Shown: piece after piece, positions 35,148-64,000 of the stretch
How positions within the stretch are numbered: the first letter of the stretch is position 1
How the letters are laid out: every line of letters starts with the position of its first letter
From: Cinnamomum chago
Lineage: Eukaryota > Streptophyta > Magnoliopsida > Laurales > Lauraceae
NCBI GenBank assembly: GCA_038049695.1
Contig: CP142452.1
Span: 34,770,501 to 34,834,500 of the forward strand
DNA length: 64,000 bases
Direction of reading: 5' to 3'
Translations under genes and position numbers: made by a program
Notes under the pieces: model-generated
Database searches by the model: none
Told to the model about the DNA's origin: nothing
The model's input: only the letters and a program-made list of their open reading frames with translations

Positions 35148-37169
35148 TACTTTAATTAAAAATTAATTACAAGTCTGAAAAAAATTAATTACAACCAAAG
35201 AAAAATAAAAATCCTAATCTAGAAACCTAATCTAAGTACTGCATCACCATAAGAATTATTAGTCCAACCAATTGCAATAATTATTAAGATGCATGAAAAT
35301 AAAATATAAATAAATAAAATCAGAGAAAAAAATGGATTTTAATTCTAAAACTTTGCAATAATTACTTTGCTAAATGCCATCAATAAAAATCAAGACCATT
35401 GCACCAAGTGCGCACTGTCACTACGCACAAAAATTCGATGTTGACCCATTGGTGAAGACCAAGACCCCATAAACTTGATTTATTAATGAAAGACCCATTA
35501 CAAGAAAATAACCATTACAAAATTATTTGAATCAAAATAAAATGCATCCAACCTTACCTTAGACACATGAAACACTAAATGGAGGAGAGGGACTCGCGGT
35601 CTTGAACGGCAATTCAACCGGCTCTCGTTTTGCGATCTGAAATCCAAGCAAGGGAAGATGATGAATAGATGGTCCGATGGTGGATCGACGGTAGCAACGG
35701 CGGTGGTGCGACGGTGGCGTGGAAATCCAAGTGGTGGTGTGCCTTAGGGAAGGCCTTGGATGAAATATTGATGGAAGGATGAAAGATGGAGAAAAATTAA
35801 TGGAAAATGAAGGGAAAATGGTTGCTGGTCGTCCAAGAGAAGGGGTGGATGGAATTGACGTGCAACCCATTTTTTGGTCTTTTTATATCGTCTTTTTATA
35901 TTCTTTTGATATCTTGGGCTGCAAGGTTTTTGGTTTGGGAATGATAAGTTATGTGGGGTCCAAGTTGGATTAGGATTAGGAGGGTTTTGTCAAAGTTTCA
36001 AGGGATTGGCCTACAATCCTAGTGAGAATAGGATTCTTATTATCTTATGCAACTTCCTCTCTTGGACCCACTTTGGCTAAGAATCAATTCAAATATGAAA
36101 TTTCAGATTTGAAACAAATCTTGGATGCTTGTGGTCCCCTTTTATCTTGGACGTGTAATGCCTTAGTATGGAGGGCTTGGACGTGTGTATTCTTGGGTTG
36201 AAAACTTCAAATCTTGAGGCCTATCTTTTTGGAGATAAATTTAACAACTTGGTGCTAAAATCTTGGATTCTTTGATTTAGTTTCCAACTTGGATTGCTTA
36301 GAAAGATCTTCCCACGGCCATTTTTTTAGAACTCTTCATGGTTGGAAAAATATCTTTTGATGGGCCCACTTCTCTCTTGAAAAGATCCCTTCAAATCTGA
36401 AATTAATTTCAAACATGGAATAGAAGTAGGCCCCACTTGAAAATATGCAACCTTTGAACTCCACACCATGCATGGACGTCCTCTCCTTGGCTGGATTTTC
36501 TTTTGCAAATTTTTTTCTTCTTTGTTTGGCTTGAATTGAATCTTAGCCATCCATCATGACATGTAAGCAATATTTGTTGGAGAGTAGATATGACACCTCA
36601 CATCACATGGCCCGCAAATTTGGAACTTATCTTCAAGAGATTAAATCTGAATTTTTGCATATGAGAGCGGACCCTCCCATGGTCGTCCCTACCTTAGAAT
36701 CCATGCCCAACGAAGGTGGGTCCCATGGTGCATTTGATTAATCAATTCTCTTCCGCGGGCCCCAATTTCTGAAATTCCCTACAAAAATAAAAGCAAATGT
36801 CAAAGAATAATCTATTCATATAGGGAAGGAATTATGCAAGATGCGGGCCCAATTCACATTAAATAGATGCATAAAATGTCACCATTTTATCAAATTTTCT
36901 TTAATTAAATCAATGGTGCAAATAAAATTCATCATTTTATGTGTAAATAAAATGCAATGAGAAATTTGTGACTTTCAATGCCAAAAATAGAGAAATTCAT
37001 GATTTTATGATAAAATGCAATTTTTCAATGAGTTTTGACTCGAATTCAAACTTTGATGGCCACAAACAGAAATCATGATTTTTATACTAAAATGGTGCAT
37101 GATTTGATGATTAAGTCCTTAATTAATTCTAAAATAATGAGGAAATTATGCATTTTTAAGGACTTATCA
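35148..37169 (-). repeat. LTR-A, truncated at its 3' end
   Basis: Same sequence as LTR-B from base 45077 on. About 147 bases that should include the U5 end and the CA terminus (equivalent to 44930-45076) are replaced by unrelated sequence. Its 5' end (minus strand) is intact: TGATAAGTCC at 37169. TATA-like TATAAAAAG occurs twice on the minus strand at about 35880-35901. Confidence 0.85.
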
Positions 37170-37181
37170 CACCCCCGAACC
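37170..37181 (-). other. Polypurine tract, copy 1
   Basis: The minus strand reads GGTTCGGGGGTG directly before the LTR start TGATAAG. This is the usual Athila arrangement. Identical tracts are at 47099-47110 and 57028-57039. Confidence 0.75.
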
Positions 37182-38641
37182 AGCATTTTGCTAGTCCCAA
37201 GCAAAATATGCGAACTAGGGTTGGTCTTCTAGCCTAATCTAATATAATATAAATGCAAAGACAAAATGGAAAACACCACTTTCGCTGGTAGCGTATGCAG
37301 CAAGCCCTTAAACCCCTAGGTTACTCCTAGTGGACGAGTTGTGCCTCGTGAGGGTTTGCAGTGAATATGTCCACAAAACTCATTTACCTAAAAATAAAAT
37401 AAAATGAAATAAAATAAATCAACGAAGAGTTTTTCAAAAGACGATTGAGTCAAATCAGATGCCTTGAATCCTCGAATAATCAAGATTTCAGGCTTTTCAA
37501 AATCTGGTTCGCTTTTTTCTTTTCAAATCTTTTAAAAAATTATACTAAAACTTTGGGTGCCCTGTGTAGGTGTATACATCAAATCAAAAATTTTAAATGT
37601 TCTATGATAATGCCATTAAAACAAAATTCTCTCTAAGAATTTCCAACTTTCCTAGATTCGGGGTATAACGCACACATGTGACTGTGCAATGCCTAGGTCC
37701 CTTAAGCTTTCTAATTAACCCATGTAATGAGCGTTAGGCCAATGACTCACAAAACAGATGTCTTTAGGGCACTACCTAGGTATATAAATACCCCTACGGG
37801 TTTACTAGCTCGGGATAAAAAGGCTACGAATCCAAACTCGTCACACAACTAAACACTTTCTTTTCTCTTTTTTTTTGTTTCTTTTTGTTTTTTTTTTCAT
37901 TGTTTTTTATAAACACCTATTTGTGCATCCCTTGACACCTTTTTTTTTATTTTTTTAAACGGTCCCCAACAATAGGCAGTCTTTTTCAATTCGCCGAATT
38001 AATTCACTGGTTTTGGTTGGCCTAACCTTACCGATGAACCAGGAGAACTCATATGACCAAATTTCAGAAAGTTGTCTCTTTTTTCTCTTTTGAAAGAACT
38101 CTGAAAATGACACTTAAATCTTTTTATTCAAGACTTTTGAAATGATGTACATGTGTTATTGTGAAAAACAAAGTTCGGTATTCTTTTTATCTTTCAAAAC
38201 ATTGTGAGCCTTCATTTTACTTCCTTCCAAAAATTCTGAAATTCAAGATTTCTAGACATCTTTGAATCGTCAAGTTCTTTTGAAAAATCCCTCTTTTTTT
38301 TGTTTTGTTTTGTTTTGTTTTCTTTTTTTCTTTTTTCTTTTTTTGAGAGAACTATGCAAAAATGAAAAAAAAATTGTTTAAAATTGGACAAGTGTGCTTG
38401 TTCCCACCCCCCAACCTAATCTAGACAGCGTCCTCGATGTCAGACATGAAATGCAAAATGGAATGTAACAAGAGGTGAAAATGTAAAGGGAGGAAAGGGG
38501 TAGAAAGCACCTAAAATAATGAAGCTTTTACGTAGAAACCTGTCTAATGTGAGACAAAGAATACAAAAAGAAAAGGCATGAAAAAATATATATATACACA
38601 TAATGTACAAAGGTGTGGGCCACTGTCAGATCTGGTGCCCA
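37182..38641 (-). other. Non-coding 3' internal region, copy 1
   Basis: About 1.46 kb between the end of pol and the polypurine tract. Many Athila elements carry an envelope-like ORF here; I see none, only frames below 70 codons, a (TTTTG)n tract at about 38300 and pyrimidine runs. The same region recurs at 47111-48570 and 57040-58499. Confidence 0.7.
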
Positions 38642-41600
38642 TTAATCCTGATAGACAGGATCGATCAGAGGAATTTCATTTTCCTCTGGAGGAAAAGTCT
38701 CCAAGAATGGTTTTAAACGTTGTCCATTAACTTTAAAAGAGGAACCATTCGATGGATCAATGAGGGTCACTGCCCCATATGGAAATACTTCTTGAACAAT
38801 GCAGGGGCCTGTCCAACGAGATCTTAACTTTCCAGGGAAAAGATGAAGTCGAGAGAATTGTACAATAGGACTTTTTGAGACGGATGGAATGACTTCCTTA
38901 ATATCCGTTTATCATAAACGGCCTTAGTCCTCTCTTTGTAAATTCTTGAGTTCATATAAGCCTCATTTCTCAATTCTTCTAATTCATTTAAATCAAGGGA
39001 TCTTTTCTCCCCAGCCTTGTTTAGATCAAGATTCAATTGTTTTATGGCCCAATAAGCTTTATGTTCCAGCTCCACCGGAAGGTGACAAGCTTTCCCATAT
39101 ATAAGCCGGTATGGAGACATCCCAATTGGGGTCTTATAAGCAGTTTTGTAAGCCCACAAAGCATCGTTTAGCCGCATTGACCAATCCTTACGACTTGGTT
39201 TTACCGTGATTTCCAAAATTCTTTTGATTTCCCTATTTGAGACCTCTACCTGCTCACTTGTTTGAGGGTGATAGGGGGTAGTCACTTTATGTGTAACACC
39301 GTAATTTTTAAACAAACTCTCAATGATGCGGTTACAAAAGTGAGTGCCCCCATCACTAATGATGGCACGTGGAGTTCCAAAACGGGAAAAGATATTGTCC
39401 AAGATAAACTTTTTGACAGTTTTAGCATCATTATTCCTACATGGGACTGCTTCAATCCATTTGGACACATAATCGACTACGACGAGGATATAATGAAAAC
39501 CAAAGCTCGGGGGAAAAGGTCCCATAAAGTCTATACCCCAAACATCGAATAACTCGACGACCAAAATTGGGTTTAAAGACATCATATTCCTTTTGGAAAT
39601 GGAACCCCATTTTTGGCACCGCTCACATGCCTTACAGAAGTGTAAATCCAAATTGTAAAATTTTGTGAACGGTCTTCTTAGCAGAAAAATGGCCACCACA
39701 AGCATGAGAGTGGGAAAATGATATTACACTGTTTATTTCATGGTCAGGAATGCATCTCCTAATGATTTGGTCTGGGCAGTATTTAAAAAGGTATGGTTCA
39801 TCCCAGAAAAACTGTTTCACTTCAGTGAAAAACTTATTTTTATCTTGTTGCGTCCATTCTTTTGGAATTTCACCTGAAGCTAGATAATTAGCAATATCAG
39901 CATACCATGGAGAATGGGAAAATGTGGCAAACAATTGCTCATCAGGGAAAGTGTCCTGGATTGGCAAGGGTTCTAAAGTGTTGGAAAGGACAAGCCTAGA
40001 AAGATGATCAGCCGCCACATTTTCTACTCCTTTCTTATCTTTGATTTCGATATTGAACTCTTAGAGTAAAAGGATCCATCTGATCAATCTGGGCTTGGCA
40101 TCCTTCTTGGAAAAAAGGTACTTCAGCGCAGAATGGTCAGTAAAGATCACAATTTTGGATCCAATTAAGTAGGAACGAAATTTATCCAGTGCATAGACCA
40201 CAACCAATAGTTCTTTCTCTGTTGTAGAATAATTAATCTGTGCACTGTTTAAAGTCCTGCTAGCATAGTAAATCACATATGGCTTTTTGTCCCTACGTTG
40301 CCCAAGAACTGCCCCAACCGCATAATCGCTAGCATCGCACATGATTTCAAAGGGCAGGCTCCAATCTGGATGTTGCATAATTGGAGCAGTCGTCAACATG
40401 TCCTTAAGCTTGGTAAAAACCGCTTGACATGCCTCTGTCCACTCAAATTCTGCTTCCTTTAGCAGAAGGTTACATAATGGTCTAGAAATGACACTGAAAT
40501 CTTTTATGAACCTTCTGTAGAATCCGGCATGCCCTAAGAAATTCTTACTTCTCTTACGGTTTTTGGGGAGGGCAAATTGGAAATTAAATCTATTTTGGCT
40601 TTGTCCACTTCCAATCCTCTAGATGATACAATGTGGCCAAGGACAATCCCTTGTCGTACCATAAAATGACATTTTTCCCAATTCAATACTAAATTCTTTT
40701 CTTCACACCTAGAAAGGACCTTAGTTAAGTTGCTCAAACAATCTTGGAATGAATCTCCAAAAACTGAAAAATCGTCCATGAAGACTTCGAGAAAACATTC
40801 CACCATATCACTAAAAATACCCAGCATGCACCTTTGAAAGGTTGCAGGAGCATTACACAGCCCAAAGGGCATCCGTCGATAAGCAAAGGTACCAAAGGGG
40901 CATGTGAAAGTTGTTTTCTCTTGGTCTTCAGGGGCGATTTCTATTTGATTGTACCCAGAATATCCATCTAAGAAACAATAATACTCGTAGCCAGCTACCT
41001 GTTCTAAAACTTGGTCCAAGAAGGGTAGGGGAAATGATCCTTTCGTGTGACAGCATTTGATTTTCTATAGTCGATACAAACTCACCAACTTGTGGGTACG
41101 CGGGTTGGGACGAGCTCATCATTAGCATTACGGACTACAGTGACGCCGGCCTTTTTAGGTATAACTTGGGTAAGGATAACCCATTGGCTATCCGAAATTG
41201 GGTAAATGATACCCACATCTAGAAGTTTTAAAACTTCAGCCCTAACCAATTCCTGCATAGTGGGGTTTAACCGGCGTTGCATTTGACGGGAGGGTTTTGC
41301 ATTCTCCTCCAAATAGATATGATGTGTACACATGAGGGAATTAATTCCCTTAATGTCAGCCACAGTCCAAGCAATTGCACCTTTGTGTAGTTTGAGCACT
41401 TGTAAGAGTTGGACTTCTTGGTCCTTGTCAAGGTGTGCAGAAATGACTACAGGAAATGTTTCATTTTCTCCAAGGTATGCATATTTCAGGTGAGAGGGCA
41501 AGGGTTTCAACTCAGGTTTGGGCGGCCTCATCTGAGATGGAAGGGACGAAGTACCAGTTGGTACCAGCTCTTCAGAAAAGGTTTTGCCTACAGTGTTGAC

Positions 41601-43895
41601 TAGTTCAACAGTGCTATCATGTTTTTCTTTGCAGAGGGTCAGGTCCTCAATTGACTTAATAGAATCGGAGATCGATTTTTCAAAAGTTTCTGCTGTAAGA
41701 ACACCGATCAAATCTACTTCTTCAAGGTCAATGTTATCATCCTGTGGTTGTTTGCAAAGGTCAAAAAAATTTAGCTCTAATGTCATGCTACCAAAAGATA
41801 GCGTCATTTTTCCATTCTGGCAATTGATCAGTGCATTGGATGTGGCTAAAAATGGTCTCCCCAAAATTACCGGAATCTGAGTATGAGGATATGCCAGAGG
41901 ATGAGCGTCTAGCACAATAAAGTCTACTGGAAAGTAGAACTTGTCAACCTGCACAAGCACATCCTCTACTATCCATCTCGGTCTTTTGATTGATCGATCT
42001 GCTAGTTGCAAAGTAACCTAGGTGGGTTTGAGTTCGCCCAGTCCCAATTTTACATAGACCAAGTAAGGTAGTAAGTTGACACTTGCCCCAAGATCAAGCA
42101 ATGCTTGTTCAATTTGATAATTTCCAATAATGCACGAAATTGTGGGGCATCCTGGGTCTTTGAATTTAGGGGGAGTGTCGTGCTTTAGAATTGCACTAGC
42201 TTGCTCAGTGAGAAACACTTTCTTTTGTACATGTATCTTACGCTTCAACGTGCATAACTCTTTAAGAAACTTTGCATAAGATGGGACTTGTTTGATTGGG
42301 TCTAACAACGGGATGTTAATTTTGACCTCTTTAAGCACATCCAAGATTTCCTGGTTCTGTATTGATAGCTTGGGAGGAGCTAATCGGTTAGGAAAAGGCG
42401 GTAAGGACTTGAATCCCGGAGGAACTGGGCTTTTCTCCTTGATAGGAGGGGCTTCATTTTCCAAATTAGGCTTTTCAATCTCTTTACCACTACGTAGAGT
42501 AGTAACAGCTTGAACCTGCTCCTTTGAATTTGACGGACCACCTTGATGAACCTCATATTGTCCTTTTGGATTGGGCTGTGGTTGGGCTGGAAAAGCCCCT
42601 TTATTTTGTGTTTCAATTAACTTGCAGAGGTTCTGCATGGTGTTCGGTAAATTCTCAAAGTTCCTATCATGTTTTTTATTAATGGACTCTTGATTCACCA
42701 TAAACTTAGCCACAAGTTCATCCCAAGGTGTCGTTTGAGTTGTAGGGGGTACCATTTGCTGTGTGTTTTGAGCATATGTACCAAAAATACCCCCAAATTG
42801 AGTTGACATTTGGTTGAAATTGGGCGGAGTAGCATTTGGGCCATTCCTCCAACTAAAGTTGGGGTGATTCCTCCGATTAGGGTTGTACGTGTTACCCAAA
42901 GAATTGTTAAACTGCCGGTTGTATGTATTAGTGGCATTTGCTTATTCGTGAAGCGCTTCTTGGAAAGCAGGGAGTGTTGGACACTCTGAAGAAATATGTT
43001 TATCACTAGCGCAGATGCCACAAACTACAGCAGGTTCCTTATTCTTCACAAATTTCAAGGACTCAACTTCTCTTGTAAGATAGGCAATTTTTGCTTGAAG
43101 ATCATCATTTTCTTTTAATACATATAACCACCCTCCCTTTGCTTAATTTGATTGTTTTACGGTGTCTATACCTTCATATGTGTCCCGATTTTGTGCACTA
43201 TCTGCCGAAAACTGAAGGTAGGTCCATGCTTGATTTGGGTTCTTTGCCATGAATTCCCCATTGCACATCATCTCCACGAATTGACGTGTTTCTAGACTAA
43301 GTCCATCATAGAAGTGACCAATTATATTGTGCAATTCAAATCCGTGGTGGGGACATGCAAGGAATAGTTCATTAAAGCGTTCCCAACACCTATAATAAGA
43401 CTCCTTATCTTTTTGTTTAAAACTCATAATATTTCTCCATAAGGTGTATGTCTTATGTAATGGGAAAAATTTCTTTAAAAATTCTCGGACCATGTCGGAC
43501 CATAGAACAATCGAATTGGGCTGTAAGGAGTGAAGTCATGCCTTAGCCTTATCTCTGAGGGAAAATGGAAATAAACAAAATTTGATAAGGTTTTCTCTCA
43601 CATGATTGAAGTGTAGTGTTGCACACACTTCTTCGAACTCTTTTATGTGCAAATATGCACTTTCCGATTCAAGTCCATGAAATTTGGGGAGAAGTTGGAT
43701 TACTCCCGGTTTGATATCAAATTGACCCGCACTTGCGGGTATAACCATGCACGACGGTGTGGCTTGTCGTGTAGGGTGAAGGTAATCACGTAGACTCCTA
43801 ATTAGTGGTTGATTCACCTCCCCATTATTATTGGGTCCATTCCCATTACCGTTCTCATTCCTAATTTCATCATTATCACTATGCTCATCAGCCAT
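38642..43895 (-). pseudogene. Athila gag-pol, copy 1, disabled
   Basis: Order on the minus strand: gag (from Met at 43895, RDYLHPTRQATPSC), zinc knuckle CGICASDKHISSEC (about 43020-42980), Gag-Pol linker, protease (LLDLGASVNLLPY, about 42090-42050), RT (FLDGYSGYNQI; active site FMDDFSVF), RNase H ([20 protein letters not shown]), integrase HHCC ([16 protein letters not shown]), DDE core ([25 protein letters not shown]) and a short C-terminus ending at TAA 38642. Stops at 43536, 43143, 42942, 42018, 41082 and 40061; frame breaks near 41030, 40540, 39640 (with loss of about a dozen codons in the zinc finger) and 38853. It cannot make a polyprotein. Confidence 0.92.
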
Positions 43896-44905
43896 ATTGG
43901 AAATCCTAATAGAACCAGGAGATCTAGATTCGTAGAATTTAATCAAGCCCTTGATAGGTGATTCCTTCCTTTCTAACCGATTTGAGGAGTCCCTCTGCCA
44001 AGAAGATGGGGGTCTTTCCTTTTTTTTTTGGAATTTTGAAAAGTTTTTCTTTTTAAAGAAACCTAGAAAGAAAAACTACCTAAGGTCCGTTTTTAGATTT
44101 AAAAGAATATTCTCAAATTCTTGCAAAGTCTTAATCTTAGAAAGTTTGATCTCTAAGGAAAGTTCCCAAACTCAAGTCTATGAAACTGGCCCGACTAGGT
44201 AAGCCCCCAGATCAGTGGTGGGGTCACGATGCGTTGCAAGAGTCCCGCTTAAAAACCACTTTCTAGAACAAGAGACTTGTCTCCCTTATCTAATGGGACA
44301 AGACTTGCCTAGACATCGAACCAATCAAGAAAGGCAGTTTGTTCGGCTTTCCAAAAAAATAACTAACCTTCTTAGAGAAAAATTCCAGCAAGTTTTTAAG
44401 AGTCCTTTTAAATTTTAAAAACAACTAAAATAACTGAATTTCCAATTAAAGTTCTGAAATTTTCAGATTTTGGCAAGTTTGGTGGCCAAAAAGCCGAATT
44501 TGCACGATCTAAGACTTGCCTTTGTGAGGGAAAGTTCCAGAGTTTTTTTGGAAACTTTAAAAACCTAAAAATATGAAAAAAAACTGATTTTAACACACTT
44601 AATTAATCCTAACCAGCAACTAAAAAATCAACCTAAACTAGTCCAAATTAGAACAAGTAAACTAGGCAATTTTTCGAAATTTATGTGATTTTTGAAAAAT
44701 CAGAAAAAATAATTTTTCAGATCTGAAATAGTCCCAATTTTATCAAAAATCAGAGATTAAAAATCCACTTTTTAATGCAATCGGGCTAGTCCAAACATTC
44801 CATGCATGCTACCCTTAGATTTAGAATGATTGCGGAATAATAAAGGCACACCCACAAAGCAATTAAAAAGATAGGTTGGAAAAATTACCTCAAACGAAGA
44901 AAAAC
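43896..44905 (-). other. 5' leader, copy 1
   Basis: About 1 kb between the primer site and the gag start. Non-coding; frames on either strand are short and without motifs. Recurs at 53825-54834. Confidence 0.7.
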
Positions 44906-44923
44906 TCCCCGGCAACGACGCCA
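44906..44923 (-). other. Primer-binding site, tRNA-Asp type, copy 1
   Basis: The minus strand reads TGGCGTCGTTGCCGGGGA, complementary to the 3' end of plant tRNA-Asp except for one T in place of C. Six bases separate it from the LTR end at 44930. This site is characteristic of the Tat/Athila branch. Copy 2 has it at 54835-54852. Confidence 0.85.
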
Positions 44924-44929
44924 AAAACT

Positions 44930-47098
44930 TGGTCGTAGCCCCAAGTGCAAGGCCGCGATTGTAGTAATAACTCGGTGAAGTCCGAGGTCGATCCACAGGG
45001 AGTAATTAATCGTGCAAAACCTGTCCTATTGAAAACTAGTTCTAGCCTAAAAAAAATTATACAAATCAAATGTCCTACTTTAATTCAAAATTAATTACAA
45101 GTCTGAAAAAAATTAATTACAACCAAAGAAAAATAAAAATCCTAATCTAGAAACCTAATCTAAGTACTGCATCACCATAAGAATTATTAGTCCAACCAAT
45201 TGCAATAATTATTAAGATGCATGAAAATAAAATATAAATAAATAAAATCAGAGAAAAAAAATGGATTTTAATTCTAAAACTTTGCAATAATTACTTTGCT
45301 AAATGTCATCAATAAAAATCAAGACCATCGCACCAAGTGCGCACTGTCACTACGCACAAAAATTCGATGTTGACCCATTGGTGAAGACCAAGACCCCATA
45401 AACTTGATTTATTAATGAAAGACCCATTACAAGAAAATAACCATTACAAAATTATTTGAATCAAAATAAAATGCATCCAACCTTACCTTAGACACATGAA
45501 ACACTAAATGGAGGAGAGGGACTCGCGGTCTTGAACGGCAATTCAACCGGCTCTCGTTTTGCGATCTGAAATCCAAGCAAGGGAAGATGATGAATAGATG
45601 GTCCGATGGTGGATCGACGGTAGCAACGGCGGTGGTGCGACGGTGGCGTGGAAATCCAAGTGGTGGTGTGCCTTAGGGAAGGCCTTGGATGAAATATTGA
45701 TGGAAGGATGAAAGATGGAGAAAAATTAATGGAAAATGAAGGGAAAATGGTTGCTGGTCGTCCAAGAGAAGGGGTGGATGGAATTGACGTGCAACCCATT
45801 TTTTGGTCTTTTTATATCGTCTTTTTATATTCTTTTGATATCTTGGGCTGCAAGGTTTTTGGTTTGGGAATGATAAGTTATGTGGGGTCCAAGTTGGATT
45901 AGGATTAGGAGGGTTTTGTCAAAGTTTCAAGGGATTGGCCTACAATCCTAGTGAGAATAGGATTCTTATTATCTTATGCAACTTCCTCTCTTGGACCCAC
46001 TTTGGCTAAGAATCAATTCAAATATGAAATTTCAGATTTGAAACAAATCTTGGATGCTTGTGGTCCCCTTTTATCTTGGACGTGTAATGCCTTAGTATGG
46101 AGGGCTTGGACGTGTGTATTCTTGGGTTGAAAACTTCAAATCTTGAGGCCTATCTTTTTGGAGATAAATTTAACAACTTGGTGCTAAAATCTTGGATTCT
46201 TTGATTTAGTTTCCAACTTGGATTGCTTAGAAAGATCTTCCCACGGCCATTTTTTTAGAACTCTTCATGGTTGGAAAAATATCTTTTGATGGGCCCACTT
46301 CTCTCTTGAAAAGATCCCTTCAAATCTGAAATTAATTTCAAACATGGAATAGAAGTAGGCCCCACTTGAAAATATGCAACCTTTGAACTCCACACCATGC
46401 ATGGACGTCCTCTCCTTGGCTGGATTTTCTTTTGCAAATTTTTTTCTTCTTTGTTTGGCTTGAATTGAATCTTAGCCATCCATCATGACATGTAAGCAAT
46501 ATTTGTTGGAGAGTAGATATGACACCTCACATCACATGGCCCGCAAATTTGGAACTTATCTTCAAGAGATTAAATCTGAATTTTTGCATATGAGAGCGGA
46601 CCCTCCCATGGTCGTCCCTACCTTAGAATCCATGCCCAACGAAGGTGGGTCCCATGGTGCATTTGATTAATCAATTCTCTTCCGCGGGCCCCAATTTCTG
46701 AAATTCCCTACAAAAATAAAAGCAAATGTCAAAGAATAATCTATTCATATAGGGAAGGAATTATGCAAGATGCGGGCCCAATTCACATTAAATAGATGCA
46801 TAAAATGTCACCATTTTATCAAATTTTCTTTAATTAAATCAATGGTGCAAATAAAATTCATCATTTTATGTGTAAATAAAATGCAATGAGAAATTTGTGA
46901 CTTTCAATGCCAAAAATAGAGAAATTCATGATTTTATGATAAAATGCAATTTTTCAATGAGTTTTGACTCGAATTCAAACTTTGATGGCCACAAACAGAA
47001 ATCATGATTTTTATACTAAAATGGTGCATGATTTGATGATTAAGTCCTTAATTAATTCTAAAATAATGAGGAAATTATGCATTTTTAAGGACTTATCA
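44930..47098 (-). repeat. LTR-B, 2,169 bp, shared by copies 1 and 2
   Basis: On the minus strand it runs from TGATAAGTCC (47098) to GGGGCTACGACCA (44930), with TG...CA ends. It is the 5' LTR of copy 1 and, at the same time, the 3' LTR of copy 2 (polypurine tract at 47099-47110). Two TATAAAAAG boxes lie at about 45809-45830, some 880 bases before the LTR end. The 103-codon minus-strand frame inside (45799-45488) is Ser/Pro-rich without known motifs. Confidence 0.88.
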
Positions 47099-47110
47099 CA
47101 CCCCCGAACC

Positions 47111-51500: not shown

Positions 51501-53824
51501 TCAGAAAAGGTTTTGCCTACAGTGTTGACTAGTTCAACAGTGCTATCATGTTTTTCTTTGCAGAGGGTCAGGTCCTCAATTGACTTAATAGAATCGGAGA
51601 TCGATTTTTCAAAAGTTTCTGCTGTAAGAACACCGATCAAATCTACTTCTTCAAGGTCAATGTTATCATCCTGTGGTTGTTTGCAAAGGTCAAAAAAATT
51701 TAGCTCTAATGTCATGCTACCAAAAGATAGCGTCATTTTTCCATTCTGGCAATTGATCAGTGCATTGGATGTGGCTAAAAATGGTCTCCCCAAAATTACC
51801 GGAATCTGAGTATGAGGATATGCCAGAGGATGAGCGTCTAGCACAATAAAGTCTACTGGAAAGTAGAACTTGTCAACCTGCACAAGCACATCCTCTACTA
51901 TCCATCTCGGTCTTTTGATTGATCGATCTGCTAGTTGCAAAGTAACCTAGGTGGGTTTGAGTTCGCCCAGTCCCAATTTTACATAGACCAAGTAAGGTAG
52001 TAAGTTGACACTTGCCCCAAGATCAAGCAATGCTTGTTCAATTTGATAATTTCCAATAATGCACGAAATTGTGGGGCATCCTGGGTCTTTGAATTTAGGG
52101 GGAGTGTCGTGCTTTAGAATTGCACTAGCTTGCTCAGTGAGAAACACTTTCTTTTGTACATGTATCTTACGCTTCAACGTGCATAACTCTTTAAGAAACT
52201 TTGCATAAGATGGGACTTGTTTGATTGGGTCTAACAACGGGATGTTAATTTTGACCTCTTTAAGCACATCCAAGATTTCCTGGTTCTGTATTGATAGCTT
52301 GGGAGGAGCTAATCGGTTAGGAAAAGGCGGTAAGGACTTGAATCCCGGAGGAACTGGGCTTTTCTCCTTGATAGGAGGGGCTTCATTTTCCAAATTAGGC
52401 TTTTCAATCTCTTTACCACTACGTAGAGTAGTAACAGCTTGAACCTGCTCCTTTGAATTTGACGGACCACCTTGATGAACCTCATATTGTCCTTTTGGAT
52501 TGGGCTGTGGTTGGGCTGGAAAAGCCCCTTTATTTTGTGTTTCAATTAACTTGCAGAGGTTCTGCATGGTGTTCGGTAAATTCTCAAAGTTCCTATCATG
52601 TTTTTTATTAATGGACTCTTGATTCACCATAAACTTAGCCACAAGTTCATCCCAAGGTGTCGTTTGAGTTGTAGGGGGTACCATTTGCTGTGTGTTTTGA
52701 GCATATGTACCAGAAATACCCCCAAATTGAGTTGACATTTGGTTGAAATTGGGCGGAGTAGCATTTGGGCCATTCCTCCAACTAAAGTTGGGGTGATTCC
52801 TCCGATTAGGGTTGTACGTGTTACCCAAAGAATTGTTAAACTGCCGGTTGTATGTATTAGTGGCATTTGCTTATTCGTGAAGCGCTTCTTGGAAAGCAGG
52901 GAGTGTTGGACACTCTGAAGAAATATGTTTATCACTAGCGCAGATGCCACAAACTACAGCAGGTTCCTTATTCTTCACAAATTTCAAGGACTCAACTTCT
53001 CTTGTAAGATAGGCAATTTTTGCTTGAAGATCATCATTTTCTTTTAATACATATAACCACCCTCCCTTTGCTTAATTTGATTGTTTTACGGTGTCTATAC
53101 CTTCATATGTGTCCCGATTTTGTGCACTATCTGCCGAAAACTGAAGGTAGGTCCATGCTTGATTTGGGTTCTTTGCCATGAATTCCCCATTGCACATCAT
53201 CTCCACGAATTGACGTGTTTCTAGACTAAGTCCATCATAGAAGTGACCAATTATATTGTGCAATTCAAATCCGTGGTGGGGACATGCAAGGAATAGTTCA
53301 TTAAAGCGTTCCCAACACCTATAATAAGACTCCTTATCTTTTTGTTTAAAACTCATAATATTTCTCCATAAGGTGTATGTCTTATGTAATGGGAAAAATT
53401 TCTTTAAAAATTCTCGGACCATGTCGGACCATAGAACAATCGAATTGGGCTGTAAGGAGTGAAGTCATGCCTTAGCCTTATCTCTGAGGGAAAATGGAAA
53501 TAAACAAAATTTGATAAGGTTTTCTCTCACATGATTGAAGTGTAGTGTTGCACACACTTCTTCGAACTCTTTTATGTGCAAATATGCACTTTCCGATTCA
53601 AGTCCATGAAATTTGGGGAGAAGTTGGATTACTCCCGGTTTGATATCAAATTGACCCGCACTTGCGGGTATAACCATGCACGACGGTGTGGCTTGTCGTG
53701 TAGGGTGAAGGTAATCACGTAGACTCCTAATTAGTGGTTGATTCACCTCCCCATTATTATTGGGTCCATTCCCATTACCGTTCTCATTCCTAATTTCATC
53801 ATTATCACTATGCTCATCAGCCAT
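48571..53824 (-). pseudogene. Athila gag-pol, copy 2, disabled
   Basis: Identical in layout and lesions to copy 1: every stop and frame break recurs 9,929 bases to the right (for example stops at 53465, 53072, 52871, 51947, 51011 and 49990). The one coding change that I saw is Ser for Phe in the Gag-Pol linker (52713 against 42784). Gag start Met at 53824, end TAA at 48571. Confidence 0.92.
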
Positions 53825-54834
53825 ATTGGAAATCCTAATAGAACCAGGAGATCTAGATTCGTAGAATTTAATCAAGCCCTTGATAGGTGATTCCTTCCTT
53901 TCTAACCGATTTGAGGAGTCCCTCTGCCAAGAAGATGGGGGTCTTTCCTTTTTTTTTTGGAATTTTGAAAAGTTTTTCTTTTTAAAGAAACCTAGAAAGA
54001 AAAACTACCTAAGGTCCGTTTTTAGATTTAAAAGAATATTCTCAAATTCTTGCAAAGTCTTAATCTTAGAAAGTTTGATCTCTAAGGAAAGTTCCCAAAC
54101 TCAAGTCTATGAAACTGGCCCGACTAGGTAAGCCCCCAGATCAGTGGTGGGGTCACGATGCGTTGCAAGAGTCCCGCTTAAAAACCACTTTCTAGAACAA
54201 GAGACTTGTCTCCCTTATCTAATGGGACAAGACTTGCCTAGACATCGAACCAATCAAGAAAGGCAGTTTGTTCGGCTTTCCAAAAAAATAACTAACCTTC
54301 TTAGAGAAAAATTCCAGCAAGTTTTTAAGAGTCCTTTTAAATTTTAAAAACAACTAAAATAACTGAATTTCCAATTAAAGTTCTGAAATTTTCAGATTTT
54401 GGCAAGTTTGGTGGCCAAAAAGCCGAATTTGCACGATCTAAGACTTGCCTTTGTGAGGGAAAGTTCCAGAGTTTTTTTGGAAACTTTAAAAACCTAAAAA
54501 TATGAAAAAAAACTGATTTTAACACACTTAATTAATCCTAACCAGCAACTAAAAAATCAACCTAAACTAGTCCAAATTAGAACAAGTAAACTAGGCAATT
54601 TTTCGAAATTTATGTGATTTTTGAAAAATCAGAAAAAATAATTTTTCAGATCTGAAATAGTCCCAATTTTATCAAAAATCAGAGATTAAAAATCCACTTT
54701 TTAATGCAATCGGGCTAGTCCAAACATTCCATGCATGCTACCCTTAGATTTAGAATGATTGCGGAATAATAAAGGCACACCCACAAAGCAATTAAAAAGA
54801 TAGGTTGGAAAAATTACCTCAAACGAAGAAAAAC
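53825..54834 (-). other. 5' leader, copy 2
   Basis: Same as 43896-44905. No gene. Confidence 0.7.
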
Positions 54835-54852
54835 TCCCCGGCAACGACGCCA
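54835..54852 (-). other. Primer-binding site, tRNA-Asp type, copy 2
   Basis: Same site with the same single mismatch as at 44906-44923, six bases inside LTR-C. Confidence 0.85.
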
Positions 54853-54858
54853 AAAACT

Positions 54859-57027
54859 TGGTCGTAGCCCCAAGTGCAAGGCCGCGATTGTAGTAATAAC
54901 TCGGTGAAGTCCGAGGTCGATCCACAGGGAGTAATTAATCGTGCAAAACCTGTCCTATTGAAAACTAGTTCTAGCCTAAAAAAAATTATACAAATCAAAT
55001 GTCCTACTTTAATTCAAAATTAATTACAAGTCTGAAAAAAATTAATTACAACCAAAGAAAAATAAAAATCCTAATCTAGAAACCTAATCTAAGTACTGCA
55101 TCACCATAAGAATTATTAGTCCAACCAATTGCAATAATTATTAAGATGCATGAAAATAAAATATAAATAAATAAAATCAGAGAAAAAAAATGGATTTTAA
55201 TTCTAAAACTTTGCAATAATTACTTTGCTAAATGTCATCAATAAAAATCAAGACCATCGCACCAAGTGCGCACTGTCACTACGCACAAAAATTCGATGTT
55301 GACCCATTGGTGAAGACCAAGACCCCATAAACTTGATTTATTAATGAAAGACCCATTACAAGAAAATAACCATTACAAAATTATTTGAATCAAAATAAAA
55401 TGCATCCAACCTTACCTTAGACACATGAAACACTAAATGGAGGAGAGGGACTCGCGGTCTTGAACGGCAATTCAACCGGCTCTCGTTTTGCGATCTGAAA
55501 TCCAAGCAAGGGAAGATGATGAATAGATGGTCCGATGGTGGATCGACGGTAGCAACGGCGGTGGTGCGACGGTGGCGTGGAAATCCAAGTGGTGGTGTGC
55601 CTTAGGGAAGGCCTTGGATGAAATATTGATGGAAGGATGAAAGATGGAGAAAAATTAATGGAAAATGAAGGGAAAATGGTTGCTGGTCGTCCAAGAGAAG
55701 GGGTGGATGGAATTGACGTGCAACCCATTTTTTGGTCTTTTTATATCGTCTTTTTATATTCTTTTGATATCTTGGGCTGCAAGGTTTTTGGTTTGGGAAT
55801 GATAAGTTATGTGGGGTCCAAGTTGGATTAGGATTAGGAGGGTTTTGTCAAAGTTTCAAGGGATTGGCCTACAATCCTAGTGAGAATAGGATTCTTATTA
55901 TCTTATGCAACTTCCTCTCTTGGACCCACTTTGGCTAAGAATCAATTCAAATATGAAATTTCAGATTTGAAACAAATCTTGGATGCTTGTGGTCCCCTTT
56001 TATCTTGGACGTGTAATGCCTTAGTATGGAGGGCTTGGACGTGTGTATTCTTGGGTTGAAAACTTCAAATCTTGAGGCCTATCTTTTTGGAGATAAATTT
56101 AACAACTTGGTGCTAAAATCTTGGATTCTTTGATTTAGTTTCCAACTTGGATTGCTTAGAAAGATCTTCCCACGGCCATTTTTTTAGAACTCTTCATGGT
56201 TGGAAAAATATCTTTTGATGGGCCCACTTCTCTCTTGAAAAGATCCCTTCAAATCTGAAATTAATTTCAAACATGGAATAGAAGTAGGCCCCACTTGAAA
56301 ATATGCAACCTTTGAACTCCACACCATGCATGGACGTCCTCTCCTTGGCTGGATTTTCTTTTGCAAATTTTTTTCTTCTTTGTTTGGCTTGAATTGAATC
56401 TTAGCCATCCATCATGACATGTAAGCAATATTTGTTGGAGAGTAGATATGACACCTCACATCACATGGCCCGCAAATTTGGAACTTATCTTCAAGAGATT
56501 AAATCTGAATTTTTGCATATGAGAGCGGACCCTCCCATGGTCGTCCCTACCTTAGAATCCATGCCCAACGAAGGTGGGTCCCATGGTGCATTTGATTAAT
56601 CAATTCTCTTCCGCGGGCCCCAATTTCTGAAATTCCCTACAAAAATAAAAGCAAATGTCAAAGAATAATCTATTCATATAGGGAAGGAATTATGCAAGAT
56701 GCGGGCCCAATTCACATTAAATAGATGCATAAAATGTCACCATTTTATCAAATTTTCTTTAATTAAATCAATGGTGCAAATAAAATTCATCATTTTATGT
56801 GTAAATAAAATGCAATGAGAAATTTGTGACTTTCAATGCCAAAAATAGAGAAATTCATGATTTTATGATAAAATGCAATTTTTCAATGAGTTTTGACTCG
56901 AATTCAAACTTTGATGGCCACAAACAGAAATCATGATTTTTATACTAAAATGGTGCATGATTTGATGATTAAGTCCTTAATTAATTCTAAAATAATGAGG
57001 AAATTATGCATTTTTAAGGACTTATCA
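54859..57027 (-). repeat. LTR-C, 2,169 bp, shared by copies 2 and 3
   Basis: I saw no difference from LTR-B in the parts compared, including the A-run of 8 and the two T/C sites that separate LTR-B from LTR-A. Polypurine tract of copy 3 at 57028-57039. Confidence 0.88.
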
Positions 57028-57039
57028 CACCCCCGAACC

Positions 57040-58499
57040 AGCATTTTGCTAGTCCCAAGCAAAATATGCGAACTAGGGTTGGTCTTCTAGCCTAATCTAA
57101 TATAATATAAATGCAAAGACAAAATGGAAAACACCACTTTCGCTGGTAGCGTATGCAGCAAGCCCTTAAACCCCTAGGTTACTCCTAGTGGACGAGTTGT
57201 GCCTCGTGAGGGTTTGCAGTGAATATGTCCACAAAACTCATTTACCTAAAAATAAAATAAAATGAAATAAAATAAATCAACGAAGAGTTTTTCAAAAGAC
57301 GATTGAGTCAAATCAGATGCCTTGAATCCTCGAATAATCAAGATTTCAGGCTTTTCAAAATCTGGTTCGCTTTTTTCTTTTCAAATCTTTTAAAAAATTA
57401 TACTAAAACTTTGGGTGCCCTGTGTAGGTGTATACATCAAATCAAAAATTTTAAATGTTCTATGATAATGCCATTAAAACAAAATTCTCTCTAAGAATTT
57501 CCAACTTTCCTAGATTCGGGGTATAACGCACACATGTGACTGTGCAATGCCTAGGTCCCTTAAGCTTTCTAATTAACCCATGTAATGAGCGTTAGGCCAA
57601 TGACTCACAAAACAGATGTCTTTAGGGCACTACCTAGGTATATAAATACCCCTACGGGTTTACTAGCTCGGGATAAAAAGGCTACGAATCCAAACTCGTC
57701 ACACAACTAAACACTTTCTTTTCTCTTTTTTTTTGTTTCTTTTTGTTTTTTTTTTCATTGTTTTTTATAAACACCTATTTGTGCATCCCTTGACACCTTT
57801 TTTTTTATTTTTTTAAACGGTCCCCAACAATAGGCAGTCTTTTTCAATTCGCCGAATTAATTCACTGGTTTTGGTTGGCCTAACCTTACCGATGAACCAG
57901 GAGAACTCATATGACCAAATTTCAGAAAGTTGTCTCTTTTTTCTCTTTTGAAAGAACTCTGAAAATGACACTTAAATCTTTTTATTCAAGACTTTTGAAA
58001 TGATGTACATGTGTTATTGTGAAAAACAAAGTTCGGTATTCTTTTTATCTTTCAAAACATTGTGAGCCTTCATTTTACTTCCTTCCAAAAATTCTGAAAT
58101 TCAAGATTTCTAGACATCTTTGAATCGTCAAGTTCTTTTGAAAAATCCCTCTTTTTTTTGTTTTGTTTTGTTTTGTTTTCTTTTTTTCTTTTTTCTTTTT
58201 TTGAGAGAACTATGCAAAAATGAAAAAAAAATTGTTTAAAATTGGACAAGTGTGCTTGTTCCCACCCCCCAACCTAATCTAGACAGCGTCCTCGATGTCA
58301 GACATGAAATGCAAAATGGAATGTAACAAGAGGTGAAAATGTAAAGGGAGGAAAGGGGTAGAAAGCACCTAAAATAATGAAGCTTTTACGTAGAAACCTG
58401 TCTAATGTGAGACAAAGAATACAAAAAGAAAAGGCATGAAAAAATATATATATACACATAATGTACAAAGGTGTGGGCCACTGTCAGATCTGGTGCCCA
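57040..58499 (-). other. Non-coding 3' internal region, copy 3
   Basis: Matches 37182-38641. No envelope-like ORF. Confidence 0.7.
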
Positions 58500-61400
58500 T
58501 TAATCCTGATAGACAGGATCGATCAGAGGAATTTCATTTTCCTCTGGAGGAAAAGTCTCCAAGAATGGTTTTAAACGTTGTCCATTAACTTTAAAAGAGG
58601 AACCATTCGATGGATCAATGAGGGTCACTGCCCCATATGGAAATACTTCTTGAACAATGCAGGGGCCTGTCCAACGAGATCTTAACTTTCCAGGGAAAAG
58701 ATGAAGTCGAGAGAATTGTACAATAGGACTTTTTGAGACGGATGGAATGACTTCCTTAATATCCGTTTATCATAAACGGCCTTAGTCCTCTCTTTGTAAA
58801 TTCTTGAGTTCATATAAGCCTCATTTCTCAATTCTTCTAATTCATTTAAATCAAGGGATCTTTTCTCCCCAGCCTTGTTTAGATCAAGATTCAATTGTTT
58901 TATGGCCCAATAAGCTTTATGTTCCAGCTCCACCGGAAGGTGACAAGCTTTCCCATATATAAGCCGGTATGGAGACATCCCAATTGGGGTCTTATAAGCA
59001 GTTTTGTAAGCCCACAAAGCATCGTTTAGCCGCATTGACCAATCCTTACGACTTGGTTTTACCGTGATTTCCAAAATTCTTTTGATTTCCCTATTTGAGA
59101 CCTCTACCTGCTCACTTGTTTGAGGGTGATAGGGGGTAGTCACTTTATGTGTAACACCGTAATTTTTAAACAAACTCTCAATGATGCGGTTACAAAAGTG
59201 AGTGCCCCCATCACTAATGATGGCACGTGGAGTTCCAAAACGGGAAAAGATATTGTCCAAGATAAACTTTTTGACAGTTTTAGCATCATTATTCCTACAT
59301 GGGACTGCTTCAATCCATTTGGACACATAATCGACTACGACGAGGATATAATGAAAACCAAAGCTCGGGGGAAAAGGTCCCATAAAGTCTATACCCCAAA
59401 CATCGAATAACTCGACGACCAAAATTGGGTTTAAAGACATCATATTCCTTTTGGAAATGGAACCCCATTTTTGGCACCGCTCACATGCCTTACAGAAGTG
59501 TAAATCCAAATTGTAAAATTTTGTGAACGGTCTTCTTAGCAGAAAAATGGCCACCACAAGCATGAGAGTGGGAAAATGATATTACACTGTTTATTTCATG
59601 GTCAGGAATGCATCTCCTAATGATTTGGTCTGGGCAGTATTTAAAAAGGTATGGTTCATCCCAGAAAAACTGTTTCACTTCAGTGAAAAACTTATTTTTA
59701 TCTTGTTGCGTCCATTCTTTTGGAATTTCACCTGAAGCTAGATAATTAGCAATATCAGCATACCATGGAGAATGGGAAAATGTGGCAAACAATTGCTCAT
59801 CAGGGAAAGTGTCCTGGATTGGCAAGGGTTCTAAAGTGTTGGAAAGGACAAGCCTAGAAAGATGATCAGCCGCCACATTTTCTACTCCTTTCTTATCTTT
59901 GATTTCGATATTGAACTCTTAGAGTAAAAGGATCCATCTGATCAATCTGGGCTTGGCATCCTTCTTGGAAAAAAGGTACTTCAGCGCAGAATGGTCAGTA
60001 AAGATCACAATTTTGGATCCAATTAAGTAGGAACGAAATTTATCCAGTGCATAGACCACAACCAATAGTTCTTTCTCTGTTGTAGAATAATTAATCTGTG
60101 CACTGTTTAAAGTCCTGCTAGCATAGTAAATCACATATGGCTTTTTGTCCCTACGTTGCCCAAGAACTGCCCCAACCGCATAATCGCTAGCATCGCACAT
60201 GATTTCAAAGGGCAGGCTCCAATCTGGATGTTGCATAATTGGAGCAGTCGTCAACATGTCCTTAAGCTTGGTAAAAACCGCTTGACATGCCTCTGTCCAC
60301 TCAAATTCTGCTTCCTTTAGCAGAAGGTTACATAATGGTCTAGAAATGACACTGAAATCTTTTATGAACCTTCTGTAGAATCCGGCATGCCCTAAGAAAT
60401 TCTTACTTCTCTTACGGTTTTTGGGGAGGGCAAATTGGAAATTAAATCTATTTTGGCTTTGTCCACTTCCAATCCTCTAGATGATACAATGTGGCCAAGG
60501 ACAATCCCTTGTCGTACCATAAAATGACATTTTTCCCAATTCAATACTAAATTCTTTTCTTCACACCTAGAAAGGACCTTAGTTAAGTTGCTCAAACAAT
60601 CTTGGAATGAATCTCCAAAAACTGAAAAATCGTCCATGAAGACTTCGAGAAAACATTCCACCATATCACTAAAAATACCCAGCATGCACCTTTGAAAGGT
60701 TGCAGGAGCATTACACAGCCCAAAGGGCATCCGTCGATAAGCAAAGGTACCAAAGGGGCATGTGAAAGTTGTTTTCTCTTGGTCTTCAGGGGCGATTTCT
60801 ATTTGATTGTACCCAGAATATCCATCTAAGAAACAATAATACTCGTAGCCAGCTACCTGTTCTAAAACTTGGTCCAAGAAGGGTAGGGGAAATGATCCTT
60901 TCGTGTGACAGCATTTGATTTTCTATAGTCGATACAAACTCACCAACTTGTGGGTACGCGGGTTGGGACGAGCTCATCATTAGCATTACGGACTACAGTG
61001 ACGCCGGCCTTTTTAGGTATAACTTGGGTAAGGATAACCCATTGGCTATCCGAAATTGGGTAAATGATACCCACATCTAGAAGTTTTAAAACTTCAGCCC
61101 TAACCAATTCCTGCATAGTGGGGTTTAACCGGCGTTGCATTTGACGGGAGGGTTTTGCATTCTCCTCCAAATAGATATGATGTGTACACATGAGGGAATT
61201 AATTCCCTTAATGTCAGCCACAGTCCAAGCAATTGCACCTTTGTGTAGTTTGAGCACTTGTAAGAGTTGGACTTCTTGGTCCTTGTCAAGGTGTGCAGAA
61301 ATGACTACAGGAAATGTTTCATTTTCTCCAAGGTATGCATATTTCAGGTGAGAGGGCAAGGGTTTCAACTCAGGTTTGGGCGGCCTCATCTGAGATGGAA

Positions 61401-63753
61401 GGGACGAAGTACCAGTTGGTACCAGCTCTTCAGAAAAGGTTTTGCCTACAGTGTTGACTAGTTCAACAGTGCTATCATGTTTTTCTTTGCAGAGGGTCAG
61501 GTCCTCAATTGACTTAATAGAATCGGAGATCGATTTTTCAAAAGTTTCTGCTGTAAGAACACCGATCAAATCTACTTCTTCAAGGTCAATGTTATCATCC
61601 TGTGGTTGTTTGCAAAGGTCAAAAAAATTTAGCTCTAATGTCATGCTACCAAAAGATAGCGTCATTTTTCCATTCTGGCAATTGATCAGTGCATTGGATG
61701 TGGCTAAAAATGGTCTCCCCAAAATTACCGGAATCTGAGTATGAGGATATGCCAGAGGATGAGCGTCTAGCACAATAAAGTCTACTGGAAAGTAGAACTT
61801 GTCAACCTGCACAAGCACATCCTCTACTATCCATCTCGGTCTTTTGATTGATCGATCTGCTAGTTGCAAAGTAACCTAGGTGGGTTTGAGTTCGCCCAGT
61901 CCCAATTTTACATAGACCAAGTAAGGTAGTAAGTTGACACTTGCCCCAAGATCAAGCAATGCTTGTTCAATTTGATAATTTCCAATAATGCACGAAATTG
62001 TGGGGCATCCTGGGTCTTTGAATTTAGGGGGAGTGTCGTGCTTTAGAATTGCACTAGCTTGCTCAGTGAGAAACACTTTCTTTTGTACATGTATCTTACG
62101 CTTCAACGTGCATAACTCTTTAAGAAACTTTGCATAAGATGGGACTTGTTTGATTGGGTCTAACAACGGGATGTTAATTTTGACCTCTTTAAGCACATCC
62201 AAGATTTCCTGGTTCTGTATTGATAGCTTGGGAGGAGCTAATCGGTTAGGAAAAGGCGGTAAGGACTTGAATCCCGGAGGAACTGGGCTTTTCTCCTTGA
62301 TAGGAGGGGCTTCATTTTCCAAATTAGGCTTTTCAATCTCTTTACCACTACGTAGAGTAGTAACAGCTTGAACCTGCTCCTTTGAATTTGACGGACCACC
62401 TTGATGAACCTCATATTGTCCTTTTGGATTGGGCTGTGGTTGGGCTGGAAAAGCCCCTTTATTTTGTGTTTCAATTAACTTGCAGAGGTTCTGCATGGTG
62501 TTCGGTAAATTCTCAAAGTTCCTATCATGTTTTTTATTAATGGACTCTTGATTCACCATAAACTTAGCCACAAGTTCATCCCAAGGTGTCGTTTGAGTTG
62601 TAGGGGGTACCATTTGCTGTGTGTTTTGAGCATATGTACCAGAAATACCCCCAAATTGAGTTGACATTTGGTTGAAATTGGGCGGAGTAGCATTTGGGCC
62701 ATTCCTCCAACTAAAGTTGGGGTGATTCCTCCGATTAGGGTTGTACGTGTTACCCAAAGAATTGTTAAACTGCCGGTTGTATGTATTAGTGGCATTTGCT
62801 TATTCGTGAAGCGCTTCTTGGAAAGCAGGGAGTGTTGGACACTCTGAAGAAATATGTTTATCACTAGCGCAGATGCCACAAACTACAGCAGGTTCCTTAT
62901 TCTTCACAAATTTCAAGGACTCAACTTCTCTTGTAAGATAGGCAATTTTTGCTTGAAGATCATCATTTTCTTTTAATACATATAACCACCCTCCCTTTGC
63001 TTAATTTGATTGTTTTACGGTGTCTATACCTTCATATGTGTCCCGATTTTGTGCACTATCTGCCGAAAACTGAAGGTAGGTCCATGCTTGATTTGGGTTC
63101 TTTGCCATGAATTCCCCATTGCACATCATCTCCACGAATTGACGTGTTTCTAGACTAAGTCCATCATAGAAGTGACCAATTATATTGTGCAATTCAAATC
63201 CGTGGTGGGGACATGCAAGGAATAGTTCATTAAAGCGTTCCCAACACCTATAATAAGACTCCTTATCTTTTTGTTTAAAACTCATAATATTTCTCCATAA
63301 GGTGTATGTCTTATGTAATGGGAAAAATTTCTTTAAAAATTCTCGGACCATGTCGGACCATAGAACAATCGAATTGGGCTGTAAGGAGTGAAGTCATGCC
63401 TTAGCCTTATCTCTGAGGGAAAATGGAAATAAACAAAATTTGATAAGGTTTTCTCTCACATGATTGAAGTGTAGTGTTGCACACACTTCTTCGAACTCTT
63501 TTATGTGCAAATATGCACTTTCCGATTCAAGTCCATGAAATTTGGGGAGAAGTTGGATTACTCCCGGTTTGATATCAAATTGACCCGCACTTGCGGGTAT
63601 AACCATGCACGACGGTGTGGCTTGTCGTGTAGGGTGAAGGTAATCACGTAGACTCCTAATTAGTGGTTGATTCACCTCCCCATTATTATTGGGTCCATTC
63701 CCATTACCGTTCTCATTCCTAATTTCATCATTATCACTATGCTCATCAGCCAT
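58500..63753 (-). pseudogene. Athila gag-pol, copy 3, disabled
   Basis: Same domain order and the same lesions, 19,858 bases right of copy 1 (stops at 63394, 63001, 62800, 61876, 60940 and 59919). It shares the Ser variant with copy 2. Gag start Met at 63753, end TAA at 58500. The leader (63754-64000) continues past the window, so the array has at least this third unit. Confidence 0.92.
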
Positions 63754-64000
63754 ATTGGAAATCCTAATAGAACCAGGAGATCTAGATTCGTAGAATTTAA
63801 TCAAGCCCTTGATAGGTGATTCCTTCCTTTCTAACCGATTTGAGGAGTCCCTCTGCCAAGAAGATGGGGGTCTTTCCTTTTTTTTTTGGAATTTTGAAAA
63901 GTTTTTCTTTTTAAAGAAACCTAGAAAGAAAAACTACCTAAGGTCCGTTTTTAGATTTAAAAGAATATTCTCAAATTCTTGCAAAGTCTTAATCTTAGAA

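What the first reader, a model, noticed from the sequence alone, without database searches (positions are those of the whole stretch)
35148..64000. Tandem Athila array with shared LTRs, at least 2.9 units
A 9,929-bp unit (one LTR plus one internal region) repeats head-to-tail with almost no change. Normal insertion gives LTR-internal-LTR with target duplications; here single LTRs alternate with internal regions. Tandem retrotransposon arrays of this kind are known in plants but are uncommon, and arrays of long Athila elements next to a gene are more so. The right end lies outside the window.
Basis: partly seen in the sequence, partly recalled or inferred. Interest (0 to 1): 0.75.

Follow-up and report, generated by a model that had tools for sequence, protein, structure and literature searches.

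The report
Tandem retrotransposon array from LTR recombination
A dead plant retrotransposon appears to have been copied into four head-to-tail units when its two end repeats recombined out of register; such arrays are already known in plants, but here the recombination point can be read from the sequence.

Summary
A 9,929-bp unit (one LTR plus one internal region of an Athila-type Ty3/gypsy element, minus strand) repeats head-to-tail from 35,148 to the window end. The window's own genome shows the right end: four internal regions and five LTRs, 41.7 kb, no N. Units 2 and 3 are identical; away from the left edge, units 1 and 4 each differ from them by one base.

The outer LTRs (A left, E right) differ by 51 events. 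The three internal LTRs are identical to each other, match E at the 4 leftmost events and A at the other 47, so they are mosaics with one switch in a 70-bp interval. They carry mutations private to A and to E, so they formed after the element had inserted and aged. The best reading is unequal homologous recombination between the two LTRs of one old, inactive element. This argues strongly against a ready-made tandem insertion, fusion of two neighbouring insertions, and a simple assembly loop.

The kind is known: shared-LTR tandems are common in plants and Athila is enriched among them in three species (PMC11899658). The number of identical middle units still needs long reads.

The parts
35148..35149 (.). 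Left joint of the array: LTR A, cut by 147 bp, meets another dispersed repeat; about 2 bp (TA) shared at the joint
   Evidence: Unit homology starts at 35,148. The flanking repeat matches L020 up to 35,149 and runs on past the joint in L020, L023 and L024; L022 does not align with L020 beyond about the same point. The 2-bp overlap is my reading.
35148..37169 (-). LTR A, outer left LTR (3' LTR of the element), partial
   Evidence: Differs from internal LTRs only at 35,158, near 35,332, 35,377 and 35,400
37170..44929 (-). Internal region of unit 1; gag-pol remains in three frames with in-frame stops
   Evidence: Stop-to-stop pieces; Pfam domains
44930..47098 (-). LTR B, internal mosaic LTR, 2,169 bp
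   Evidence: Left part as E, right part as A; ends agree with two LTRs elsewhere that have 5-bp target duplications
45330..45399 (-). Switch interval in LTR B (between LTR positions 400 and 471)
   Evidence: Last E-type event at 400, first A-type event at 471
44907..44923 (-). tRNA-Asp-like primer binding site next to LTR B (second copy 54,836-54,852)
   Evidence: Recalled pattern, one mismatch, 0.02 expected by chance
47099..54858 (-). Internal region of unit 2
   Evidence: Same lesions as unit 1; one base differs, at 42,784/52,713
54859..57027 (-). LTR C, identical to B
57028..64000 (-). Internal region of unit 3, cut by the window end; array goes on to LTR D (64,788-66,956 in window-frame numbers), a fourth internal region and LTR E (74,717-76,892)
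38824..39723 (-). Integrase piece (PF00665)
   Evidence: E 1.6e-17
40534..41064 (-). Reverse transcriptase piece (PF00078)
   Evidence: E 2.7e-26
40061..40618 (-). RNase H piece (PF17917, PF17919)
   Evidence: E 2.3e-36
43146..43535 (-). Gag piece (PF03732)
   Evidence: E 3.1e-13

Best explanation
One Athila-type element inserted, its genes decayed and its two LTRs diverged. Then the right-hand (5') LTR of one chromosome copy recombined homologously with the left-hand (3') LTR of another, misaligned copy. That duplicated the internal region and made a mosaic internal LTR, E-type on the left and A-type on the right. At least one more exchange brought the array to four units. Shown: the array, its right end, unit identity, the single-switch mosaic, private mutations of both outer LTRs in the internal ones, shared lesions. 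Inferred: whether the partners were sister chromatids, homologues or a one-LTR circle that reinserted (the product is the same), the order of steps, the dates.
For: 51 events separate A and E; the internal LTRs match E at the 4 leftmost (positions 157-400) and A at the other 47 (471-2,160); the chance of that order with random labels is 4.0e-6. B, C and D are identical. Against the majority of three family LTRs, 2 of 3 left substitutions are E-derived and 18 of 43 right ones A-derived, so the internal LTRs carry mutations of both (one right site lies just outside the LTR). A and E are 97.7% identical, against 95.2-96.7% for the pairs of B or E with L006-L008 that I computed, as expected for two LTRs of one element. 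All units share the coding lesions. Full-length matches elsewhere reach 95% for a gag piece (36 non-array rows) and 92% for an LTR piece. Two of the nearest other LTRs are solo LTRs with perfect 5-bp target duplications, the deletion product of LTR recombination.
Against: No reads were available. Units 2 and 3 are indistinguishable, so their separate existence rests on the assembly. The left part of the mosaic has only four events. The genome lists are capped (40 of 423 and 40 of 179 candidates scored), and partial LTR matches elsewhere reach 94-97%, and 100% over 78 bases. No target duplication can be tested because the end of LTR A is missing.
Confidence: 0.93

Rival explanations
1. Assembly artefact: one element whose LTR-internal cycle in the assembly graph was walked several times.
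For: Units 2 and 3 are identical over 9,929 bp; no reads were seen; scaffold lengths look binned.
Against: A and E differ at 45 of 2,012 sites, and the mosaic LTR would need a false switch inside 70 bp between them. The units fall into three base-level types: unit 1, units 2 and 3, unit 4. There is no N across the array.
Confidence: 0.04
2. Single insertion of a ready-made tandem, by template switching or from read-through RNA of a one-LTR circle.
For: Proposed in print: PMC1950507 (part 1 of 2 read) and as one option in PMC11899658. It also gives near-identical internal regions.
Against: All LTRs would then start alike and gain mutations separately. Instead B, C and D are identical to each other and combine mutations private to A and to E.
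Confidence: 0.02
3. Recombination between two neighbouring, independent insertions of the same family.
For: It also makes a chimeric internal LTR with differing outer LTRs and no target duplication.
Against: Other copies differ from this one by at least 5% in the gag piece among 36 listed, whereas the internal regions here differ by at most two bases and share their lesions. It does not explain three identical internal LTRs.
Confidence: 0.01

Closest known systems
Tandem LTR-retrotransposon structures of plants (TLI1, TLI2 and the IDENTAM set, PMC11899658)
   Same: Internal regions alternate with shared LTRs; gypsy and, in three species, Athila are prone to it; a single insertion seems to lie at the origin.
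   Different: Four units here; the two rice loci described in detail have two. The authors left tandem insertion and later recombination both open; here the mosaic LTR points to later recombination.
Complex elements from recombination of two adjacent insertions (Devos type, described in PMC1950507)
   Same: A chimeric internal LTR and outer LTRs that differ.
   Different: Internal regions are copies of one element, not of two insertions.
Template-switch complexes of Triticeae (PMC1950507)
   Same: Three or more LTRs, nearly identical internal regions.
   Different: There the outer LTRs match closely and target duplications are present; here the outer LTRs are 97.7% identical and the left end is deleted.
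Athila clade of Ty3/gypsy elements (PMC6317226)
   Same: Non-chromovirus layout, tRNA-Asp-like primer site, large non-coding stretches, no second RNase H found.
   Different: No Athila ORF-1 domain found and no long extra ORF; the paper gives that domain for 16% of Athila elements (passage).

Membership tests
[quoted passage not shown]
   A-int-B-int-C-int-D-int-E; A lacks 147 bp
Tandem LTR-retrotransposon with shared LTRs | Flanking target-site duplication (seen in some: 10 of 28 in rice) | not testable with these tools
   Left end deleted; only the right flank AACTT is present
Product of LTR-LTR unequal recombination | Internal LTR is a mosaic of the two outer LTRs with one switch | tested here: met
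   4 events E-type, then 47 A-type, none contradicting
Recombination of two independent insertions | Internal regions from different copies | tested here: not met
   At most two bases differ between internal regions
Template-switch complex | Outer LTRs from one reverse transcription, internal LTR not a mosaic of later mutations | tested here: not met
Athila clade | Ty3/gypsy domain order gag-RT-RH-INT | tested here: met
   protease only a weak match below its cutoff
Athila clade | No chromodomain and no second RNase H (the latter marks Tat) | tested here: met
   None in the 14 element pieces scanned with Pfam; decayed frames weaken this
Athila clade | tRNA primer other than tRNA-Met; tRNA-Asp is among those of non-chromoviruses | tested here: met
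   Recalled tRNA-Asp pattern matched with one mismatch; passage
Athila clade | Athila ORF-1 domain (PF03078; reported in 16% of elements) | tested here: not met
   No match in the pieces scanned; not required
Athila clade | Place in an RT-RH-INT tree with named lineages | not tested
   No lineage-labelled reference set was at hand

The most novel reading that the evidence does not exclude
A dead Athila element is turning into a 9.9-kb satellite: the array grew stepwise, unit by unit, through LTR recombination in the recent past, and its copy number still differs between individuals of this species.
Probability: 0.3. Interest if true: 0.5.

Novelty: new member of a known kind. Interest (0 to 1): 0.4.

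Why it matters
The one systematic study of plant shared-LTR tandems that I read leaves open whether they insert as tandems or form by recombination afterwards (PMC11899658). At this locus the outer LTRs had diverged enough to mark the exchange, so the question can be answered for one case. The same three-way comparison of outer and internal LTRs can be run on any tandem whose outer LTRs differ. It also shows that an element without working genes can still gain copies.

Tried and rejected
Before the genome could be reached, only four differences clustered at the left edge were known, and a graph-loop artefact fitted them as well as recombination did; LTR E separated the two. I looked for the missing 147 bp of LTR A in the left 35 kb in case another repeat had inserted into it: no match. 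My first LTR boundary was 2 bp too long; searches corrected it, and one event counted (52 events, 46 of 2,014 sites) was dropped (51 events, 45 of 2,012). One search used the earlier boundary. Species identification failed: the best identity to a named species for the hand-joined hydrolase query was Nelumbo, 84% over 53% of the query, and one unnamed fragment had 98% over 27%. The right flank was never searched in the genome. In one search copy L022 does not align with L020 past the joint; the claim that the flanking repeat continues rests on L020, L023 and L024.

Papers: PMC11899658 parts 1-4 of 6; PMC1950507 part 1 of 2; PMC7251063 and PMC6317226 passages only; others in search listings only. 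The rate 1.3e-8 per site and year is recalled.

Full report
Observation. The window holds a direct repeat of period 9,929 bp from 35,148 to its right end. Units 2 and 3 are identical over 9,929 bp. Unit 1 differs from unit 2 at five places, four of them in its outermost 253 bp; such clustering has a chance of about 2e-6.

Anatomy. The element lies on the minus strand. A tRNA-Asp-like primer site (recalled pattern, one mismatch) lies next to an LTR of 2,169 bp, 44,930-47,098. The LTR ends are supported by two other LTRs in the genome that stand alone with perfect 5-bp target duplications, AAGTA and CTTTA. Gag, RT, RNase H and integrase domains follow in Ty3/gypsy order; protease and the integrase zinc-binding domain are only weak matches below their cutoffs. 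The coding region is broken: stop-to-stop pieces in three frames, with several in-frame stops and at least four changes of frame. Since the units differ by at most two bases away from the left edge, they share these lesions. In the array no ORF of 150 aa or more, stop to stop, lies outside the gag-pol pieces. By these features it is an Athila-type element; no tree was built.

Right end. The genome answered: 1.06 Gb in 14 contigs, window at C2:34,770,501-34,834,500. The array continues to LTR D, a fourth internal region and a complete LTR E (window-frame 74,717-76,892). In all there are four internal regions and five LTRs, A (147 bp missing), B, C, D and E, over 41.7 kb without N.

The mosaic. 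A and E differ at 45 of 2,012 aligned sites and by six indel events. At the four leftmost of the 51 events (LTR positions 157, 325, 377, 400) B, C and D match E; at the other 47 (471-2,160) they match A; none contradicts. An exchange between the right LTR of one copy and the left LTR of another must give exactly this: pure outer LTRs, internal LTR E-type on the left and A-type on the right, one switch. It lies between positions 400 and 471. Against the majority of three family LTRs (L006-L008), 2 of 3 left substitutions are E-derived and 1 A-derived; of 43 right ones, 25 are E-derived and 18 A-derived (earlier boundary, one right site just outside the LTR). So the internal LTRs hold mutations that arose separately in each outer LTR, which places the exchange after the insertion.

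Order of events. At 1.3e-8 per site and year (recalled; species unknown, so only a scale) K = 0.0227 puts the insertion near 0.9 million years, and 0 of 8,995 differences puts the separation of units 2 and 3 below about 13 thousand years. Base 42,953 is G in units 1-3, A in unit 4 and in 4 of 4 family relatives. Base 42,784 is A in unit 1, G in units 2-4 and in 3 of 4 relatives; the fourth, L016, has A. At protein level, of 120 relatives 88 cover the site, 7 of them with a gap; 53 have the residue of units 2-4 and none that of unit 1. This fits a first duplication, a mutation in the left unit, further copies of it, then a mutation in unit 1. The order rests on single bases.

Left end. The array meets another dispersed repeat at 35,148. 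That repeat runs on beyond the joint in three other copies, L020, L023 and L024; a fourth, L022, does not align past it. The missing 147 bp of LTR A were not found to the left. I read the joint as a deletion with about 2 bp shared; whether it came before or after the amplification is unknown.

Local origin. With a gag piece, 36 non-array rows have 92-95% identity (40 of 179 candidates scored). With an LTR piece, E has 94% and the best full-length match outside the locus 92%; partial matches reach 94-97%, and 100% over 78 bases (40 of 423 candidates scored). No near-identical source copy was seen in these capped lists, which fits amplification in place.

Comparison. PMC11899658 shows such tandems to be common and polymorphic in plants, with Athila enriched in Arabidopsis, almond and cotton, and leaves the mechanism open. 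PMC1950507 gives a chimeric internal LTR as the mark of recombination and closely matching outer LTRs with target duplications as the mark of template switching. This locus meets the first and not the second, with recombination inside one insertion. It is a new member of a known kind with a clear record of how it formed.

Open points. No reads were available. The units fall into three base-level types, so three units are supported by sequence differences; the identical pair 2 and 3 is supported by the assembly alone. Sister-chromatid exchange, exchange between homologues and reinsertion of a one-LTR circle give the same product.

Noticed in passing
28856-30472: A tandem duplication of about 815 bp, copies 92.5% identical, 4.7 kb left of the array. 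Its longer open frames look LINE-like to me, but Pfam found nothing.
   Followed up: partly
5216-11795: Direct repeats 5,216-5,550 and 11,459-11,795 (88% identical) enclose a decayed Ty3/gypsy element; only its integrase zinc-binding domain passes the Pfam cutoff.
   Followed up: partly
24467-24606: snoR135 H/ACA snoRNA, 64.4 bits against a gathering score of 45, apparently in an intron of the alpha/beta-hydrolase gene.
   Followed up: partly
L007 511-2709 and L008 (reverse strand) 510-2707: Two of the nearest non-array LTRs are solo LTRs with perfect 5-bp target duplications: the deletion product of the same kind of recombination.
   Followed up: yes
34185-35149: The left flank is a dispersed repeat with many copies (42 rows, 40 of 244 candidates scored), cut off at the array.
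   Followed up: partly
32447-32506: A G-rich run of about 60 bp.
   Followed up: no
G000 contigs C1, C2, C4, C5, C10, C12: The six contig lengths shown are all multiples of 2,500 bases, as if set by binned Hi-C scaffolding.
   Followed up: no
22510-22776: A gag-like fragment on the minus strand (weak Pfam matches below cutoff) inside the hydrolase gene region.
   Followed up: no
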